Under the pieces are notes generated by a model that did not search any database, had not been told where the DNA came from, and saw nothing but the letters and a program-made list of their open reading frames with translations. Below are positions 3,391 to 59,771 of a stretch of 59,771 bases of DNA, piece by piece (position 1 is the stretch's first letter; every line of letters begins with the position of its first letter). A program made the translations under genes and the position numbers. The stretch is from Bacteroidales bacterium (GTDB taxonomy: Bacteria; Bacteroidota; Bacteroidia; Bacteroidales; P3): contig JAGADZ010000020.1 in the NCBI GenBank assembly GCA_017613375.1, forward strand, positions 1-59,771. The letters run 5' to 3'.

Positions 3391-4809
3391 TTGGATAATT
3401 TAGAAGTCATAAAAATCAAGAAGGGGCTTGACATACCAATTCCTGGGACAGCTGAGCGACATACCACATTGTTGTTCCCATCATACGATGGGGTACAATA
3501 TGAATATGCCGTTAAGCCTACTGACTATGTCGGTGTTGCACCACGTCTGCTCGTTGCAGAAGGTGACGACGTCCTGGCCGGCACACCGCTGTTTGAGGAC
3601 AAAAACAACGAAGGTGTACCATTTGTGTCGCCTGTCAGCGGCACAGTGAAAGCCATCGTCCGTGGAGAAAAACGTGCACTGTTCTCTGTTATCGTGGAAG
3701 CCAATGAAGGCTTGCAGAGATATTGTTCTTTTCCAAAAGCCGATCCCCAAGAGAGCGACGCCGACACCATAAGAGAAATCATGGTCACGTCGGGCCTGTG
3801 GAACTCTCTACGCCAACGTCCGTTCAGCATTGTACCACGCAAAGGCAGCACTCCGAAAGCGATATTCATATCGGCCTTCGACAGTTCGCCTCTTCCTGTC
3901 GACTACGACTATATGCTGCAACAAGACTCTAATATCCACCGCAGAGATGACTTCCAATGGGGCATAAATGCACTTGCCAAGTTTGCCCCTGTCCACTTAT
4001 CGCTTGACGGCAAAACACAACGCAACTCATTCTTTGCCAAGACAGAAAACGCCGAAATCCATTTCTTTGAGGGTCCCCACCCTGCCGGACTTGTAGGCAC
4101 ACAGATTGCCAAAATATCACCAATCAACAAGGGTGAGACGGTATGGACCATCAACGTGCAGGATGTTGCAATCATTGGGAACCTGCTCCACACCGGGACT
4201 TACAACCCCGAACGAGTCGTGGCGTTCTGCGGCCCCGACGTAAGCGAGCCTAAATATTACAGACTGATAAGTGGCTCAGATTTGCCGGGAACAACACTCA
4301 AAAACGGCAGCGGAAAACAACGCATCATCTGTGGCGACGTGCTGAGCGGAGTCTCCATGCAGAGGACAAAAAACAATATTGAATCAGACTCATATATCTC
4401 TGCATCGTGCGACAAGGTGTGTTTCATTCCCGAAGGCGACTACTACGACTTTATGGGGTGGCTGAGACCCAATTTCCGCAAATACAGCTTCTATCGTACT
4501 TATTTAAGTGGAATACTTTCAAAATTCAGAATTCATAATTCAAAATTAGATTTTGATACTGGTATGCATGGGAGCGTTCGTCCGCTGTTTGTCACAGGCG
4601 AATTTGAAAAGCTGGTGCCGCTTGACATATATCCGATGCAGCTCATCAAAGCATGCATCATTGGCGACATCGAACTTATGGAAAACCTCGGCATTTACGA
4701 GGTGGAGCCTGAGGATCTGGCTCTATGCGAGTTTGCTGACACGTCAAAGACGGAAATACAAGCCATTATACGTGAAGGACTCGAAAAGATAAGAAAGGAG
4801 GTGGTATGA
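3391..4809 (+). CDS. nqrA: Na+-translocating NADH:quinone reductase subunit A
   Basis: Peripheral cytoplasmic subunit of the sodium-pumping NADH:ubiquinone (here probably menaquinone) oxidoreductase. The N-terminus IKIKKGLDIPIPG is typical. The only plausible start is TTG at 3391, since an in-frame TAG stands 9 nt upstream and no ATG lies nearby. At 472 residues it is longer than the usual ~450; part of the excess is an in-frame AATTCAN heptad array (4518-4547) that inserts FRIHNSKLD-type sequence before the conserved D-TGMHG segment. It overlaps nqrB by 4 nt (ATGA). Its last codons hold the AGAAAGGAGG Shine-Dalgarno-like sequence for nqrB. Confidence 0.92.
   Translation: MDNLEVIKIKKGLDIPIPGTAERHTTLLFPSYDGVQYEYAVKPTDYVGVAPRLLVAEGDDVLAGTPLFEDKNNEGVPFVSPVSGTVKAIVRGEKRALFSVIVEANEGLQRYCSFPKADPQESDADTIREIMVTSGLWNSLRQRPFSIVPRKGSTPKAIFISAFDSSPLPVDYDYMLQQDSNIHRRDDFQWGINALAKFAPVHLSLDGKTQRNSFFAKTENAEIHFFEGPHPAGLVGTQIAKISPINKGETVWTINVQDVAIIGNLLHTGTYNPERVVAFCGPDVSEPKYYRLISGSDLPGTTLKNGSGKQRIICGDVLSGVSMQRTKNNIESDSYISASCDKVCFIPEGDYYDFMGWLRPNFRKYSFYRTYLSGILSKFRIHNSKLDFDTGMHGSVRPLFVTGEFEKLVPLDIYPMQLIKACIIGDIELMENLGIYEVEPEDLALCEFADTSKTEIQAIIREGLEKIRKEVV
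4518..4547. repeat. AATTCAN heptad array inside nqrA
   Basis: About four AATTCAN heptads in frame within nqrA, in a surface-loop position judged by the conserved flanks (TYLSG before, DTGMHG after). No stop codon is created. Confidence 0.75.
4792..4801 (+). promoter_or_regulatory. Strong Shine-Dalgarno sequence of nqrB
   Basis: AGAAAGGAGG followed by TGGT and the nqrB ATG. With the next bases it reads AAGGAGGTG, a full complement to the usual 16S rRNA 3' end. The same 10-mer precedes nqrC and nqrD. It supports 4806 as the true start despite the odd N-terminus. Confidence 0.7.
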
Positions 4810-6254
4810 ACGGAGAACGGAAAACGGAAAACGGAAAACGGAAAACGGCCGAACGCGACCGTAAGGGAGCAAACGGATGTTCCTGCGGAGAGCGACCGAA
4901 CGCGACCGATTGGGAGCGAACGGGTGTTCTTGCGGAAAACGGAAAACGGAAAACTGAGAGCGGAGAACGTCCGAACGCGACCGATAGGGAGCGAACGGGT
5001 GTTCTCTCGGAGAGCGGAAAGCGAAGAACGGAGGGCGGAGTGAATGGGTGGCTTAGGAAACGGTTTGACACAATGAAGCCCAAATTTAGTAAAGGAGGTC
5101 GCTTTGAGAAACTGTCGTCGACGTTCGAAGCCTTTGAGAGTTTTGCGTTTACACCCAATACGGTGACAGGCGGCAAAGCATATAAAAGATACCGAGGATG
5201 TCATCTGCGTGACGCCGTGGATTTGAAAAGGACCATCATCACCGTCGTCATTGCCCTGATGCCTGCTCTGCTGTTTGGCATGTGGAACATTGGCTACCAG
5301 CACTATATGGCTGATGATATTATACGAATAAAGATGGGTGGAATGTTTTTCCTCGACCACCTGTTATGCTTTGTGTTCGGATTCCTGCGGATGTTGCCTA
5401 TCATCGTCACGAGCTATATCATCGGTCTCGGCATCGAGTTCCTTTTTGCCGAGATACGCCACGAGGAGGTCAGCGAGGGTTTTATCGCCACAGGTCTTAT
5501 AATCTCGATGATAGTGCCCGTCACCGTGCCGCTGTGGCAACTGGCACTGGCTGTATCCTTTGCAGTAGTGATTGGCAAAGAGGTGTTTGGTGGCAGCGGC
5601 TACAACTTCCTCAACCCTGCACTTGTGGCACGTGCATTCCTTTTTTTCAGCTATCCCAGCCATATGTCGGGCGACAGCATATGGATTGCCGCCGACTTGT
5701 GGGGCAGCGATGCAGTCACAGGTGCCACACCGCTGGGACAACTGATGTCCGGGCAGTCCCTGTCGGCCTCAGCCGTGGAGATGTTTCTCGGTACCATCCC
5801 CGGAAGCACCTGCGAGACCTCGGTAGTGGCGATACTGCTTGGAGCCGCCCTGTTGCTGATAACCGGAGTGGCCAGTTGGAGGATAATGCTTAGTGTGTTA
5901 CTTGGCGGCGGCCTTACAGGGTTGCTTTTCAACGGTATCGGAGCCAATGAATATATGCAGATACCTTTTTACTATCACTATCTGATGGGCGGATTCATGT
6001 TCGGATGTGTGTTTATGGCCACCGACCCGGTGACAGCAGCACAGACAAACATAGGCAAATGGATATATGGATTCCTTATTGGCGTCTTCGCGGTAGTGTT
6101 AAGAGTACTGAACCCTGCCTATCCCGAAGGGATGATGCTGGCAATACTGCTGATGAACTGTTTTGCACCGCTGATAGACCATTGCGTCGTAGCAGCTAAT
6201 ATCAACAGACGCAAGAAACGGTGGGCCATATCAGAAAGGAGGGCTGAGCTATGA
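4806..6254 (+). CDS. nqrB: NQR subunit B with a repeat-encoded N-terminal extension
   Basis: Large membrane subunit that carries covalent FMN and riboflavin and forms part of the sodium channel. The FMN-acceptor motif TGAT is present (DAVTGATPLG, Thr308), and several membrane helices follow. At 482 residues it exceeds the normal ~390-410. The excess is the first ~79 residues, encoded by a heptad/34-bp repeat array (4811-5042), giving KTENGKR-like and PNATDRERTGVL-like peptides. Homologues start close to the MKPKFSKGGRFEKL segment. The strong Shine-Dalgarno sequence and the ATGA overlap with nqrA favour the ATG at 4806, so the array probably inserted directly behind the original start codon; a GTG at 5040 is an alternative internal start. 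Second gene of the nqr operon. Confidence 0.93.
   Translation: MNGERKTENGKRKTAERDRKGANGCSCGERPNATDWERTGVLAENGKRKTESGERPNATDRERTGVLSESGKRRTEGGVNGWLRKRFDTMKPKFSKGGRFEKLSSTFEAFESFAFTPNTVTGGKAYKRYRGCHLRDAVDLKRTIITVVIALMPALLFGMWNIGYQHYMADDIIRIKMGGMFFLDHLLCFVFGFLRMLPIIVTSYIIGLGIEFLFAEIRHEEVSEGFIATGLIISMIVPVTVPLWQLALAVSFAVVIGKEVFGGSGYNFLNPALVARAFLFFSYPSHMSGDSIWIAADLWGSDAVTGATPLGQLMSGQSLSASAVEMFLGTIPGSTCETSVVAILLGAALLLITGVASWRIMLSVLLGGGLTGLLFNGIGANEYMQIPFYYHYLMGGFMFGCVFMATDPVTAAQTNIGKWIYGFLIGVFAVVLRVLNPAYPEGMMLAILLMNCFAPLIDHCVVAANINRRKKRWAISERRAEL
4811..5042. repeat. Composite array: CGGAAAA heptads and three 34-bp units
   Basis: Five CGGARAA heptads (4811-4845), a 34-bp unit (4849-4882), about one heptad, a second 34-bp unit (4896-4929), five heptads (4933-4967), a third 34-bp unit (4971-5004), and five more heptads (5008-5042). 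The 34-bp units begin CCGAACGCGACCG and end GTGTTC or ATGTTC; copies 2 and 3 differ at one base, copy 1 at a few more. The whole array is open in the nqrB frame. Confidence 0.92.
6233..6242 (+). promoter_or_regulatory. Shine-Dalgarno sequence of nqrC
   Basis: AGAAAGGAGG, 8 nt before the nqrC ATG, within the end of nqrB. Confidence 0.6.
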
Positions 6255-8161: not shown

Positions 8162-9451
8162 ATGTTTCATTCTATAATATCTGCAGTAATAGTATTTTTG
8201 AGCATCATCCTGGTGTTGGTGGCGTTGTTGCTTGTGTTGCGTGCCAAACTGATGCCGTCGGGAGATGTGAAGATAACCATCAACGGCGACAAGGAGCTTA
8301 CCGTCACTACTGGCAATAGCCTAATATCCACCCTTGCCGAGCAGCACATCTATCTTCCCTCAGCTTGTGGCGGCAAAGGGTCATGTGGCCAGTGCCGCTG
8401 CCGTGTTCTGCAGGGAGGAGGCTCGATACTGCCTACCGAAGTAGGCTTCTTCTCACGAAAAGAGATACAGCAGGGTTGGCGGCTCGGATGCCAGGTGAAA
8501 GTAAAAGAGGACCTAAGCATAGCAGTACCCGAGAGCATACTCAGCATCAAGGAATATGAATGCACTGTTGTATCGAACCAAAACGTGGCAACATTTATCA
8601 AAGAATTCAAAGTCCAGCTGCCTCCAGGCGAACATATGGACTTCGTGCCTGGCAGCTATGCCCAAATCAAGATACCGACATTCCGCATACCTTATTCCGA
8701 ATTTGACAAGAGCCTCATAGGCGACGAGTACCTTCCGGCATGGGAGAAGAACAAGATGTTCGACCTTGTCTGCACAAATGACGAGCCCACTGTGCGTGCC
8801 TACTCAATGGCCAACTATCCCGCCGAGGGCGATGTGTTTATGCTCACCGTGCGAATCGCCACACCGCCAATCGACAAAACGGAAAACGGAAAACGGAGAA
8901 TGGAAAACGGCGGAAGCCCCTTTTTACCTGTCAATCCAGGCATTGCATCAAGCTATATTTTCTCACTTAAGCCTGGCGATAAAGTCACTATGTCGGGGCC
9001 TTACGGCGATTTTCACGTCAGAGGAACGGAGAACGAAGAACGGATTTGGGTTGGCGGGGGTGCCGGAATGGCTCCGTTGCGGGCTCAGATTATGCACCTG
9101 ACACGCACTCTCCATTACTCGGGCATAATGCATTTCTTCTATGGTGCACGGGCGTTGAACGAAGTGTTCTACCTTGATGATTTCAGACAATTAGAGAAAG
9201 ACTTCCCTAATTTCCATTTCCACCTAGCCCTTGACCGTCCCGACCCTGCCGCCGACGAAGCCGGAGTACCCTACACTGCTGGATTTGTCCACGATGTTAT
9301 GTACAATACCTATCTGAAGAACCATCCTACCCCAGAAGATATCGAGTACTACATGTGCGGTCCCGGACCGATGTCGAAAGCCGTATGTGCAATGCTTGAC
9401 AATCTCGGCGTAGCTCCCGAGAATATCATGTTCGACGACTTCGGTGGTTGA
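8162..9451 (+). CDS. nqrF: NQR subunit F, NADH-oxidising flavo-iron-sulfur subunit
   Basis: Entry point for electrons from NADH. In order: N-terminal membrane helix (residues ~5-28), [2Fe-2S] domain with CGGKGSCGQC and a later fourth Cys (RLGC), FAD domain with RAYSMANYP, NADH-binding GGGAGMAPLRA, and C-terminal YYMCGPGPM ... FDDFGG. 429 residues versus ~405-425 usual; the surplus comes from a heptad array (8876-8910) that adds KTENGKR-type residues between RIATPP and the SSYIFSLKPGD segment. A second, shorter array (9024-9044) codes for TENEER just before GGGAGMAP. Last gene of the operon; no clear terminator follows. Confidence 0.94.
   Translation: MFHSIISAVIVFLSIILVLVALLLVLRAKLMPSGDVKITINGDKELTVTTGNSLISTLAEQHIYLPSACGGKGSCGQCRCRVLQGGGSILPTEVGFFSRKEIQQGWRLGCQVKVKEDLSIAVPESILSIKEYECTVVSNQNVATFIKEFKVQLPPGEHMDFVPGSYAQIKIPTFRIPYSEFDKSLIGDEYLPAWEKNKMFDLVCTNDEPTVRAYSMANYPAEGDVFMLTVRIATPPIDKTENGKRRMENGGSPFLPVNPGIASSYIFSLKPGDKVTMSGPYGDFHVRGTENEERIWVGGGAGMAPLRAQIMHLTRTLHYSGIMHFFYGARALNEVFYLDDFRQLEKDFPNFHFHLALDRPDPAADEAGVPYTAGFVHDVMYNTYLKNHPTPEDIEYYMCGPGPMSKAVCAMLDNLGVAPENIMFDDFGG
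8876..8910. repeat. AAAACGG heptad array in nqrF
   Basis: Five heptads, four AAAACGG and one AGAATGG, in frame in the FAD-domain loop of nqrF. Same motif and phase as the array in nqrB. Confidence 0.9.
9024..9044. repeat. GAACGGA heptads in nqrF
   Basis: Three heptads (GAACGGA, GAACGAA, GAACGGA) in frame directly before the NADH-binding glycine motif; a second site of the same family within one gene. Confidence 0.65.
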
Positions 9452-40596: not shown

Positions 40597-40670
40597 TGAC
40601 CCCGGCGGGATTCAAACCCACGACTTTCGGAACCGGAATCCGACGTTCTATTCAGCTGAACTACGGGGCC
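40597..40670 (-). tRNA. tRNA-Arg (anticodon CCG)
   Basis: Complete cloverleaf on the minus strand: acceptor GGCCCCG/CGGGGTC (one G-U), D stem GTTC/GAAC, anticodon stem TCGGA/TCCGA with loop TTCCGGT (anticodon CCG, reads CGG), 5-nt variable loop, T stem GTGGG/CCCGC and T loop TTTGAAT. The discriminator is A; CCA is not encoded. Position 19 is A and position 56 is U instead of the near-universal G19-C56 pair. Confidence 0.93.
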
Positions 40671-57539: not shown

Positions 57540-58460
57540 TTATTTGTTGACCTGGAATTTGGTGCAACCGTTCTTGAAATATTCACTGATTTGATTAGCG
57601 GCAGCAATACCTGCATTGATGTTAGCCTCTTCAGTCTGGGCACCCATTTTCTTAGGTGTTGCGAAATAGCGGCCTTCAAATGCCTTGAATTCGGCATCTG
57701 CATCAGGCATGATATCGGTGACATACTTAATATCGGTACGTTCTGCCATAAGCTTCAACAGTTCAGGTTCGTTAATAACCTCTTTGCGGGCAGTGTTGAC
57801 GAGGATACCACCCTTGCGCATCTTGTTGACAAGAGCATAGTTGATGCTTTGTTTGGTCTCTGCTGTTGCGGGGATGTGGAGGGACACAACATCGCAGGTC
57901 TCAAACAGTGCATCCTGGTTGGCGACAGCAGTAGCCATACCGCTGGCATTGATTTGGTCAGCAGTAAGGAATGCATCGTATGCATATACTTCCATACCGA
58001 AGCCCTTGGCGATGCGGGCGACGCTGCGTCCCACATTACCGAAAGCGAGGATACCAAGTTTCTTGCCCATAAGTTCGGAACCGCTCTTGCCGTTGTAGAA
58101 ATTGCGGACACAGAATACGAGCAGACCCATAACGAGCTCAGCGACGGCGTTGCTGTTCTGGCCGGGGGTATTCATGGCGATGATGCCGCGAGCGGTGCAA
58201 GCCTCGAGGTCGAGGTTGTCGAAACCAGCACCGGCACGGACGACGATCTTAAGCTGTTTGGCATGGTCGATGACCTCTTTGGTAACCTTGTCTGAACGGA
58301 CGATAAGAGCATCGGCGTCAGCAACGGCTGCATAGAAATCATTCACATCGGTATATTTCTCGAGAAGAGCCAAAGTGTGGCCGTTCTTCTCAACCACTTC
58401 GCGGATGCCGTCAACGGCCACTTTTGCGAAGGGCTTTTCTGTTGCTACAAGAACTTTCAT
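57540..58460 (-). CDS. serA: D-3-phosphoglycerate dehydrogenase
   Basis: First enzyme of serine synthesis (3-phosphoglycerate to 3-phosphohydroxypyruvate with NAD). 306 residues from the ATG at 58460 (MKVLVATEKPFAKVAVDGI), short type without ACT domain. Substrate and NAD motifs: RAGAGFDNLDLEACTARGI, LGILAFGNVGRSVARIAKGFG, HIPATAETKQSINYAL, LVNTARKEV. The final catalytic block differs from the usual EPxP..HP form. A further ATG at 58499 would add 13 residues encoded by the heptad array; I prefer 58460. Downstream of serC, with the four-helix gene between. Confidence 0.9.
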   Translation of the reverse strand: MKVLVATEKPFAKVAVDGIREVVEKNGHTLALLEKYTDVNDFYAAVADADALIVRSDKVTKEVIDHAKQLKIVVRAGAGFDNLDLEACTARGIIAMNTPGQNSNAVAELVMGLLVFCVRNFYNGKSGSELMGKKLGILAFGNVGRSVARIAKGFGMEVYAYDAFLTADQINASGMATAVANQDALFETCDVVSLHIPATAETKQSINYALVNKMRKGGILVNTARKEVINEPELLKLMAERTDIKYVTDIMPDADAEFKAFEGRYFATPKKMGAQTEEANINAGIAAANQISEYFKNGCTKFQVNK

Positions 58461-58466
58461 TTTTTT

Positions 58467-58494
58467 GTGATTAGTGATTGGTGAATAGTGATTA
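58467..58494. repeat. GTGATTA heptad array upstream of serA (left arm)
   Basis: Four heptads of the GTGAWTR type, 6 nt before the serA ATG. Together with 58953-58980 it forms an imperfect inverted repeat (22 of 28 positions match) around the four-helix gene. Confidence 0.85.
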
Positions 58495-58502
58495 GACAAA
58501 TG

Positions 58503-58883
58503 CTAAACCTCTTCAGCAATCTGGTTGTTTTTTTCTATTTCTTTTTTAATGTGTTTGTGGAAACCGGCAAGTAGTTTTTGCACAGATTCCAACTTTTCAT
58601 CTATTTCATTCATGTTGTTAATACAACCAAGAGAATAAGCAATATAGCACCGAGTCTCAACTTCTGCCAACGAGCCAGAAGCCACATTAATGAAATGGTA
58701 TAGTTCCTTATTTGAATCCCTACCGCACCCTTCTGCTATATTAGACGGGACTGAAACTACAGCACGACGTAATTGTGCAGAAAGTCCATATTGCTCATTT
58801 TGCGGGAATTTCAGCATGGTATCATGTATCACTTTTACCAAGTCATTACTTTCTTGCCACACTTTTAAATCCCTATGGTACAT
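58503..58883 (-). CDS. Four-helix-bundle protein (23S rRNA IVS / Avd family)
   Basis: 126 residues. Family pattern from start to end: DLKVWQESNDLVKVIHDTMLKFPQNEQYGLSAQLRRAVVSVPSNIAEGCGRDSNKELYHFINVASGSLAEVETRCYIA. This family (PF05635/TIGR02436) is encoded inside intervening sequences of bacterial 23S rRNA and, as Avd, beside reverse transcriptases of diversity-generating retroelements; the fold is a basic four-helix bundle that binds nucleic acid or RT. Here it sits between serC and serA, on the same strand, framed by GTGATTA heptad arrays on both sides. A short inverted repeat (ATTCGT-A-ACGAAT, 58885-58897) lies just before the start codon. No RT or rRNA is nearby. Confidence 0.92.
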   Translation of the reverse strand: MYHRDLKVWQESNDLVKVIHDTMLKFPQNEQYGLSAQLRRAVVSVPSNIAEGCGRDSNKELYHFINVASGSLAEVETRCYIAYSLGCINNMNEIDEKLESVQKLLAGFHKHIKKEIEKNNQIAEEV

Positions 58884-58924
58884 AATTCGTAACGAATGAA
58901 TTTAGACCCTTCAATGGTAAACAT

Positions 58925-58980
58925 GTGAATAGTGACCAGTGATAGTATTGTCTATTCACTAATCACTATTCACTATCCAC
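58925..58980. repeat. Inverted GTGATTA heptad array after serC (right arm)
   Basis: Eight 7-nt units: three of the GTGANNN type, a TATTGTC spacer, then four of the reverse-complement type (TATTCAC, TAATCAC, TATTCAC, TATCCAC). The outer four are inverted relative to the array at 58467-58494. The inner pair can form a local hairpin. Confidence 0.88.
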
Positions 58981-58986
58981 CCAACA

Positions 58987-59771
58987 TTACTTATTAGCTT
59001 TCTCAAAATCCTGCATGCACTGGACGAGAGCCTCGACGGCCTCGACGGGGCAAGCATTGTAGAGGCTGGCACGGAAGCCACCAACGCTACGGTGCCCCTT
59101 GATGCCGACCATGCCACGCTCCTTGGCGAAAGCCATGAAAGCATCCTGCAGGTTCTCGCGGCCTTCAGCCATAACCCAGCAATGGTTCATGATAGAACGG
59201 TCTTCCTTCTCGGCAGTACCGCGGAACATGCTGTTGCGATCGATTTCCTCATAGAGCATGTTGCTCTTCTTAAGGTTGATTTTGTTCATGTTCTCAACAC
59301 CGCCAATGGTGTTCTTAACCCACTTCAGGGTCTCGTGCATAACAAAGATAGCGCTTACTGGAGGAGTGTTGAACATGGAGATGTTCTTAGCCTCTTCAGC
59401 AGCGTGGGTACGGAAGTCCACCATAGTTGGCAGAGGATTCATATACTGACGGTCGGTAATCTTGCCGAGGATGTCCTTGCGAACGATGTAGAAAGTAACA
59501 CCGGCAGGACCCACGTTCTTCTGGGCACCACCATAGATAAGACCATATTTCTTAACGTCGACGGGACGGCTCATGATGTCAGAGCTCATGTCGGCAACGA
59601 GCATAACATTGTTAATCTCGCTGGCATCCATGTCGCGACGGATCTCGGTACCGTAGATGGTGTTGTTGGTAGTGATGTGGAAGTAGTCGGCGTCAGCAGG
59701 AACTGTCCAGCCCTTGGGGATGTAGCTGTAAGTCTTGTCCTCGCTGCTGGCAACGATAACGGTCTCACCAA
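58987..59771 (-). CDS. serC: Phosphoserine aminotransferase, 5'-partial at window edge
   Basis: PLP-dependent second step of serine synthesis (also 3-hydroxy-4-phosphohydroxythreonine in B6 synthesis). The first in-window ATG (59631) is internal: upstream codons ([34 protein letters not shown]) are conserved SerC sequence and run to the window end. The PLP-lysine lies in [19 protein letters not shown]; the C-terminus has [25 protein letters not shown]. Part of the serC-serA operon. Confidence 0.93.

What the first reader, a model, noticed from the sequence alone, without database searches (positions are those of the whole stretch)
58467..58980. Four-helix-bundle gene framed by inverted heptad arrays inside the serC-serA operon: an mRNA counterpart of an rRNA intervening sequence?
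Seen: a gene of the 23S-rRNA-IVS/Avd family sits between serC and serA. On its serA side is an array of four GTGAWTR heptads; on its serC side is an array whose outer four heptads are inverted relative to it (22 of 28 positions match), plus a second local inverted pair. Known: in 23S rRNA the ORF of this family lies inside intervening sequences bounded by inverted repeats that pair and are cut by RNase III; relatives (Avd) work with reverse transcriptases. Inference: this 514-bp unit has inserted between two genes usually adjacent, and in the transcript its ends may pair, so the ORF could be excised or serC and serA uncoupled. It would be a self-contained cassette outside rRNA, with ends made of low-complexity heptads instead of fixed TIRs.
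Basis: partly seen in the sequence, partly recalled or inferred. Interest (0 to 1): 0.8.

Follow-up and report, generated by a model that had tools for sequence, protein, structure and literature searches.

The report
Small gene cassette with private ends
A small bacterial gene of unknown role sits between matching inverted arrays of mostly seven-letter repeats whose sequence is private to each gene copy, a pattern seen here in several bacterial phyla, which suggests a tiny mobile element that carries and co-evolves with its own ends.

Summary
In detail: a PF05635 (23S rRNA IVS/Avd-like four-helix-bundle) gene lies between serC and serA, bracketed by inverted 7-bp arrays. It is not local. Of 122 usable rows of family copies from related genomes, 92 have matching inverted arrays on both sides, against 8 of 610 when downstream flanks are swapped between copies. 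In 80 loci from several phyla it is 36, against 2 of 400. The repeat unit differs between cassettes, also within one genome, but matches within a copy, and it travels with the protein: closely related proteins at different sites share units. Units of some cassettes also occur as solo arrays in the same genome, reminiscent of REP/RAYT systems; this link is partial and weak for the window's own unit.

The proposed RNA mechanism is not supported: arm mismatches show no G-U excess (90 against 121), unit order is not mirrored, and a cyanobacterial copy lies antisense in its operon. Best reading: a minimal mobile cassette whose arrays are iteron-like ends co-evolving with the encoded protein. Architecture, presence/absence and unit inheritance are shown; protein binding and the route of movement are inferred. 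Heptad arrays also occur without the gene.

The parts
58503..58883 (-). Four-helix-bundle (PF05635 / TIGR02436) gene, 126 aa
   Evidence: only solved-structure hit 2gsc (XCC0516, 5 chains), phmmer E 1.1e-20
58467..58495 (.). Downstream arm (serA side): four heptads, GTGAWTR on the + strand, i.e. C-rich on the gene strand
58495..58502 (-). Inner core motif CATTTGTC (gene strand) next to the downstream arm
   Evidence: similar motif at the same place in related cassettes; GACRA core at both inner edges in 23 of 111 copies, at one edge in 11 more
58952..58980 (.). Upstream arm (serC side): four inverted heptads, G-rich on the gene strand
58945..58952 (-). Inner core motif GACAATAC (gene strand) after the upstream arm
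58925..58942 (.). Local anti-array that can pair with 58956-58973, forming a leader hairpin before the gene
   Evidence: 89% complementary; folds of 13 leaders
57540..58460 (-). serA, downstream neighbour
   Evidence: name from the finding
58987..59771 (-). serC, upstream neighbour (cut by window end)
   Evidence: name from the finding

Best explanation
The unit is one copy of a widespread minimal mobile cassette: a four-helix-bundle gene plus two inverted iteron-like arrays of about 4-5 short repeats (mostly 7 bp) that form its ends. SHOWN: the two arrays match each other within a copy, differ between cassettes, are shared by closely related proteins at different sites, and drift together as the protein diverges; cassettes sit in gaps between protein genes and are present or absent in related species; units of some cassettes are over-represented as solo arrays in the same genome. 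INFERRED: the encoded protein (nearest solved relative XCC0516 is an assembly of five bundles) binds one repeat per subunit at both ends, bringing them together, so that ends and protein stay matched while the sequence is free to change; movement probably uses replication, a host enzyme or another element's enzyme, because no catalytic domain was found in the window protein; solo arrays are ends copied or left without the gene.
For: Matched arms: 92 of 122 rows against 8 of 610 swapped-partner controls and 4 of 345 random windows; 36 of 80 multi-phylum loci against 2 of 400. In 450 kb sampled around 23 copies, the 19 periodic inverted pairs with 350-700 bp spacing, at 13 loci, all bracket the gene. 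Own arms beat the nearest relative's arms in 34 of 35 copies at 60-70% protein identity, and no longer at 90% or more (8 of 17). Unit similarity rises with protein identity for 3605 different-site pairs, permutation p 0.0005, the smallest that 2000 permutations can give. Arrays hold a median of 4.6 and 4.7 units. Presence/absence: 11 of 68 serC-serA gaps; a Nostoc plasmid nrdB-nrdA gap occupied, the Calothrix one empty. Dispersal: solo arrays match units of same-genome cassettes in 5.1% of pairs against 1.7% for other genomes; the AGTGGGT pattern has 76, 20 and 12 overlapping matches in the three genomes with that cassette and none in 95 of 119; of prediction P1, G001 ranks first of 119 with 132 matches.
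Against: No movement was observed, no exact joint or target duplication was resolved, no enzyme is known. 112 of 144 arrays lie more than 250 bp from any such gene, some in apparent nqr coding sequence of this window. G139 and G092 have 60 and 34 AGTGGGT matches although their best L012-like protein is 35% and 37% identical. The window's own unit has 5 matches in its genome and up to 206 in others. P1 was half met: G127 ranks third, but 18 of its 31 matches lie at its own cassette. P2 was not met: G139 first, G035 tied third, G117 lower. Pattern counts count overlapping matches, and species relatedness was not corrected for. 30 of 122 rows lack a matched pair. Binding is untested.
Confidence: 0.45

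Rival explanations
1. RNA-level intervening sequence: the arms pair in the mRNA, RNase III cuts the stem, and the ORF is removed or the two operon genes are uncoupled.
For: Same protein family as rRNA IVS ORFs, whose terminal repeats pair and are cut by RNase III (PMC4990558, abstract and passages). Co-directional with both neighbours in 84 of 111 copies against 218 of 347 baseline genes, simple ORF caller. Strong leader hairpins. Upstream arm richer in G than C in 81 copies, poorer in 6, of 92.
Against: No G-U excess among arm mismatches: 70 against 89, 90 against 121, p 0.04 in the other direction. Unit order not mirrored between arms once arrays are trimmed, 42 against 35 of 79 copies, p 0.08. 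Nostoc copy antisense in the nrd operon. No rRNA at the window or at L001 and L003.
Confidence: 0.2
2. Pre-existing heptad hairpins or microsatellites are insertion sites, and the gene drops into them; the arrays belong to the host.
For: Period-7 arrays are common without the gene (111 of 144 arrays have period 7; 32 of 144 lie within 250 bp of the gene). Of 15 periodic inverted pairs with 20-350 bp spacing, 14 have no gene. Gene-less heptad hairpin at serC-serA in L111. Downstream array present in gene-less argF relatives.
Against: Units follow the protein between sites. Cassettes of one genome do not share units, 1.3% of pairs against 1.4% between genomes. Five gene-less argF relatives read by eye show the downstream array only.
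Confidence: 0.17
3. Autoregulated small gene, mainly vertically inherited: the arrays are operator or leader sites for the protein, kept alike in both flanks by recombination between them, without dedicated mobility.
For: Leader hairpin kept in structure but not sequence in serC-serA copies. Many same-site pairs. Upstream arm polarity nearly fixed.
Against: Closely related copies at different sites with the same units, occupied species scattered among empty ones, up to 18 matches per genome, in G002.
Confidence: 0.13

Closest known systems
23S rRNA intervening sequences with S23p/IVP ORF (Leptospira, Coxiella)
   Same: Same protein family; ORF framed by terminal inverted repeats; patchy distribution thought to be horizontal (PMC4990558, abstract and passages; PMC11270868, passages).
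   Different: Lies between protein genes, not in rRNA; ends are short-period arrays private to each cassette; no sign of selection for RNA pairing in the arms.
REP/RAYT (REPtrons, TIRtrons)
   Same: Gene flanked by inverted repeats, repeat families specific to the gene copy, repeats also dispersed in the genome (PMC3733652, passages).
   Different: Protein is a four-helix bundle; only PF05635 was found in it. Repeats are short-period arrays, not GTAG-tagged palindromes. Dispersal link incomplete.
Avd of diversity-generating retroelements
   Same: Related family: PF05635 is said to resemble Avd (PMC10053308, passage); weak NF033474 hit of L020.
   Different: Below the Avd cut-off (31.6 against 80 bits for L020; no hit at E 0.001 for the window protein); template and variable repeats were not searched for.
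Heptanucleotide repeats: cyanobacterial STRR, TAACTGA arrays of Beggiatoaceae
   Same: Intergenic 7-bp arrays of unknown function (PMC2670836, one passage; PMC4679880, passages). Two four-helix genes on Nostoc plasmid pNe_5 have such arms, each with a solo array of the same unit on the plasmid.
   Different: No link to this gene family in the passages seen; 'intervening', 'four helix' and '23S' do not occur in the main text of PMC4679880.

Membership tests
PF05635 / TIGR02436 four-helix-bundle protein | Profile match over curated cut-off | tested here: met
   113.9 bits against 33.8; TIGR02436 109.9 against 24
23S rRNA intervening sequence | Located inside an rRNA gene | tested here: not met
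   Rfam gathering scan of window, L001 and L003 gives only a tRNA at window 40597-40670; neighbours are protein-coding frames
23S rRNA intervening sequence | Terminal inverted repeats around the ORF | tested here: met
23S rRNA intervening sequence | Excision by RNase III | not testable with these tools
   Needs RNA data; indirect G-U test negative
RAYT / REPtron | Y1 tyrosine transposase gene | tested here: not met
   Only PF05635 found in the window protein at E 0.001
RAYT / REPtron | Gene flanked by inverted copies of its repeat | tested here: met
RAYT / REPtron | Same repeat dispersed in the genome | tested here: inconclusive
   Seen for AGTGGGT in G012, G141, G096 and AGTGGTC in G001; 5 matches for the window's unit in G000; P2 not met; G139 and G092 have solo arrays without a close cassette
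DGR Avd | NF033474 over cut-off | tested here: not met
DGR Avd | Adjacent reverse transcriptase and TR/VR | not tested
   Not searched for

The most novel reading that the evidence does not exclude
A pan-bacterial class of minimal mobile elements without a transposase of its own: a pentameric four-helix-bundle protein reads private arrays of about five heptads at both ends, each subunit taking one repeat, so every lineage owns a free-running address that drifts with its protein; the dispersed 7-bp repeats of unknown function in cyanobacteria, Bacteroidota and others are the shed or copied ends of such elements, and rRNA intervening sequences are the same element caught in rRNA.
Probability: 0.27. 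Interest if true: 0.95.

Novelty: new variant of a known kind. Interest (0 to 1): 0.85.

Why it matters
It gives an abundant protein family of unknown role (over the cut-off in 52 of 61 genomes searched) a testable ligand, its own flanking arrays, and offers an origin for 7-bp repeats whose function is described as not known (PMC2670836, passage). It also adds a gene/repeat pair in which the repeat sequence is free but matches at both ends and follows the gene, a natural experiment on co-evolving recognition. In the nine searches I saw, in listings and in passages of the papers opened, no report of this association; the library holds only open-licence papers, and most listed papers were not opened.

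Tried and rejected
RNA pairing selection in the arms: not supported. Mirrored unit order: a first test looked positive (p 3.5e-5) but its array ends held non-array sequence; trimmed, it is not significant, so one search is not used. Unit = target sequence: at serC-serA and argF similar units recur by site, but different-site pairs show the unit following the protein (which replaces). Exact empty-site joints: serC-serA empties differ too much, and in Nostoc/Calothrix I place the joint only to about 10-15 bp by eye, because the aligner misplaced the left flank. The Calothrix brevissima twin-plasmid copy is a larger shared segment by its annotation, not a transposition. Phage records: no match. 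The reversed-pattern control is not independent, since that pattern reads almost the same backwards.

Counts and drops: the 122 rows include one broken gene (L136) as two rows and many orthologues at shared sites, so rows are not independent. 2 of 124 rows lacked flank. Copies under 60 bits were left out. 31 of 142 copies with arm score under 16 were left out of the unit analysis. 2 of 70 serA loci gave no serC gap; these 70 are among the best matches of 119 genomes. 'Different site' means no tblastx flank match; short flanks can be misjudged. Of 17 viral-contig loci 10 score 16 or more, several near-duplicates; not used as evidence.

Full report
The observation. The gene at 58503-58883 (minus strand) encodes a 126-aa PF05635 protein and lies between serC and serA on the same strand (names from the finding).

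It is a family trait. The own genome has six PF05635 matches. The three strongest (L001, the window copy L002, L003) each have short-period arrays on both sides with three different units. The three weakest have no matched pair (arm scores 11.5, 8 and 9), though L005 and L006 have a period-9 array nearby. Among 61 genomes (own plus 60 relatives of the same genus or order; Bacteroidales by the title of the closest named locus, L244), 52 have the family over cut-off, with up to 18 matches each. From these and the serA loci I collected 124 distinct rows, 122 with usable flanks. The best ungapped upstream/downstream inverted match is 16 or more in 92; after swapping downstream flanks between copies it is 8 of 610, and in random windows of the same geometry 4 of 345. 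In the best 80 loci kept from a scan of named species genomes, from several phyla by their titles, it is 36 of 80 against 2 of 400. In 450 kb sampled around 23 copies, arrays are common (144, of which 111 have period 7; 32 within 250 bp of the gene). Inverted pairs with periodic arms and 350-700 bp spacing occur 19 times at 13 loci, and all bracket the gene; of 11 such pairs with non-periodic arms 4 do; of 15 periodic pairs with 20-350 bp spacing 1 does, and of 8 with 700-1600 bp 1 does. The stretches were chosen around the gene, so the background is the remainder of the same stretches.

Private but matched, and inherited with the gene. The period is 7 in 62 of 97 measurable copies and 8 in 16; arrays hold a median of 4.6 and 4.7 units. 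The upstream arm is richer in G than C in 81 of 92 copies and poorer in 6. Different cassettes of one genome share units no more often (1.3% of 152 pairs) than cassettes of different genomes (1.4% of 296). Across 3605 pairs of copies at different sites, unit similarity rises with protein identity (Spearman 0.26, permutation p 0.0005). Examples are L067/L018 and L020/L017 at about 90% identity; a counter-example is L085/L148, 87% identical with similarity 0.24. The L012 subfamily shows a series AGTGGGT, AGTTGGT, AGTGGAT, AGTGGTC. Own arms beat the nearest relative's arms in 34 of 35 copies at 60-70% identity and in 8 of 17 at 90% or more. So the arms behave as part of the moving unit and change together.

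Presence and absence. Of 70 serA loci read, 68 give a serC-serA gap; 11 hold the gene and the other 57 are 26-333 bp. Occupied species are scattered: L044 (occupied) and L049 (empty) are 97.6% identical over the last 450 bases before the serC stop. L038 is a gene-less remnant with arrays, L111 a short heptad hairpin without gene. Other copies lie in gaps between protein-coding frames (gene names there are recalled from translations). At the argF site 5 of 29 gaps hold the gene with both arrays, while five gene-less gaps keep a downstream array (by eye). On Nostoc edaphicum plasmid pNe_5 a cassette sits antisense between nrdB and nrdA; the Calothrix NIES-4105 plasmid has these genes at about 85% identity without it.

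Tests of the RNA reading. If the arms were kept for pairing in the transcript, G-U mismatches should exceed A-C mismatches; they do not (70 against 89; 90 against 121 with more copies). Variant units are not in mirrored order (42 against 35 of 79, p 0.08). Co-orientation with both neighbours is 84 of 111 against 218 of 347, a modest excess. For the serC-serA type, 12 of 13 leaders fold a long hairpin of array and anti-array before the gene with sequence differing by species (L045 is the exception), so a leader role, for example autoregulation, stays open.

Dispersal. In 390 kb of three genomes, solo arrays match cassette units of their own genome in 5.1% of 1221 pairs against 1.7% of 1925 pairs for other genomes. 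Genome-wide patterns over 119 genus genomes count overlapping matches, not arrays. AGTGGGT has 76, 20 and 12 matches in G012, G141 and G096, whose cassettes have that unit, and none in 95 genomes, but also 60 in G139, 34 in G092 and 14 in G023; the best L012-like proteins of G139 and G092 are 35% and 37% identical. The GGAGTGA type has 74, 59, 19 and 13 matches in G001, G002, G008 and G007 with such cassettes, but also 74 and 53 in G110 and G079, and none in G068, G088, G093 and G105, which have related cassettes whose unit looks about 11 bp long. Of two predictions written beforehand, P1 was half met: G001 132 matches, first; G116 47, not predicted; G127 31, third, but 18 of those lie at its own cassette. 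P2 was not met: G139 21, G135 14, G035 and G088 9, G117 5. For the window's own unit the genome has 5 matches while others have up to 206. Relatedness was not corrected for. On pNe_5 two cassettes have two units, each with a solo array of the same unit in the 105 kb sampled; two 50-kb stretches of a Trichormus plasmid that also carries a four-helix gene have none.

Reading. Shown: matched private arrays, their inheritance with the gene, presence/absence between species, a partial link to solo arrays. Inferred: recognition of the arrays by the protein, one repeat per subunit of a pentamer (the title of the XCC0516 structure paper, seen in a reference list, names five four-helix bundles; 2gsc has 5 chains), and mobility by borrowed machinery. 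The closest working analogy is RAYT/REP; membership fails because no transposase domain was found in the protein.

Noticed in passing
window 4518-4547, 4808-5040, 8876-8910: Heptad arrays (AATTCAA and AACGGAA types) inside what look like nqr operon coding sequences (gene names recalled from the translations), with no four-helix gene nearby: heptad arrays also occur alone and apparently in frame.
   Followed up: partly
serC-serA gaps of L036-L125: Many gene-less gaps hold another stem-loop of unrelated sequence, or an apparent in-frame serA N-terminal extension that itself contains an inverted repeat (by eye): an intercistronic hairpin seems kept in place but not in sequence.
   Followed up: partly
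L187 and L190 cassette leaders: A small palindromic insert beginning AACCTCTAAAAAT lies in the leader of two same-site cassettes; looks like a MITE.
   Followed up: no
argF upstream gap, L215, L218, L221, L223, L228: Other sequence of about 450-560 bp, apparently other small ORFs, occupies the same gap with only a downstream AATTCAA array.
   Followed up: no
G139: One genome is rich in solo arrays of several units although searches found only 3 and 1 four-helix matches in it; possible graveyard of lost cassettes or another source of arrays.
   Followed up: no
L327, L328, L330-L335, L338, L339 (viral contigs): Cassettes with matched arms occur on contigs classed as viral; origin of these contigs not checked.
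   Followed up: no
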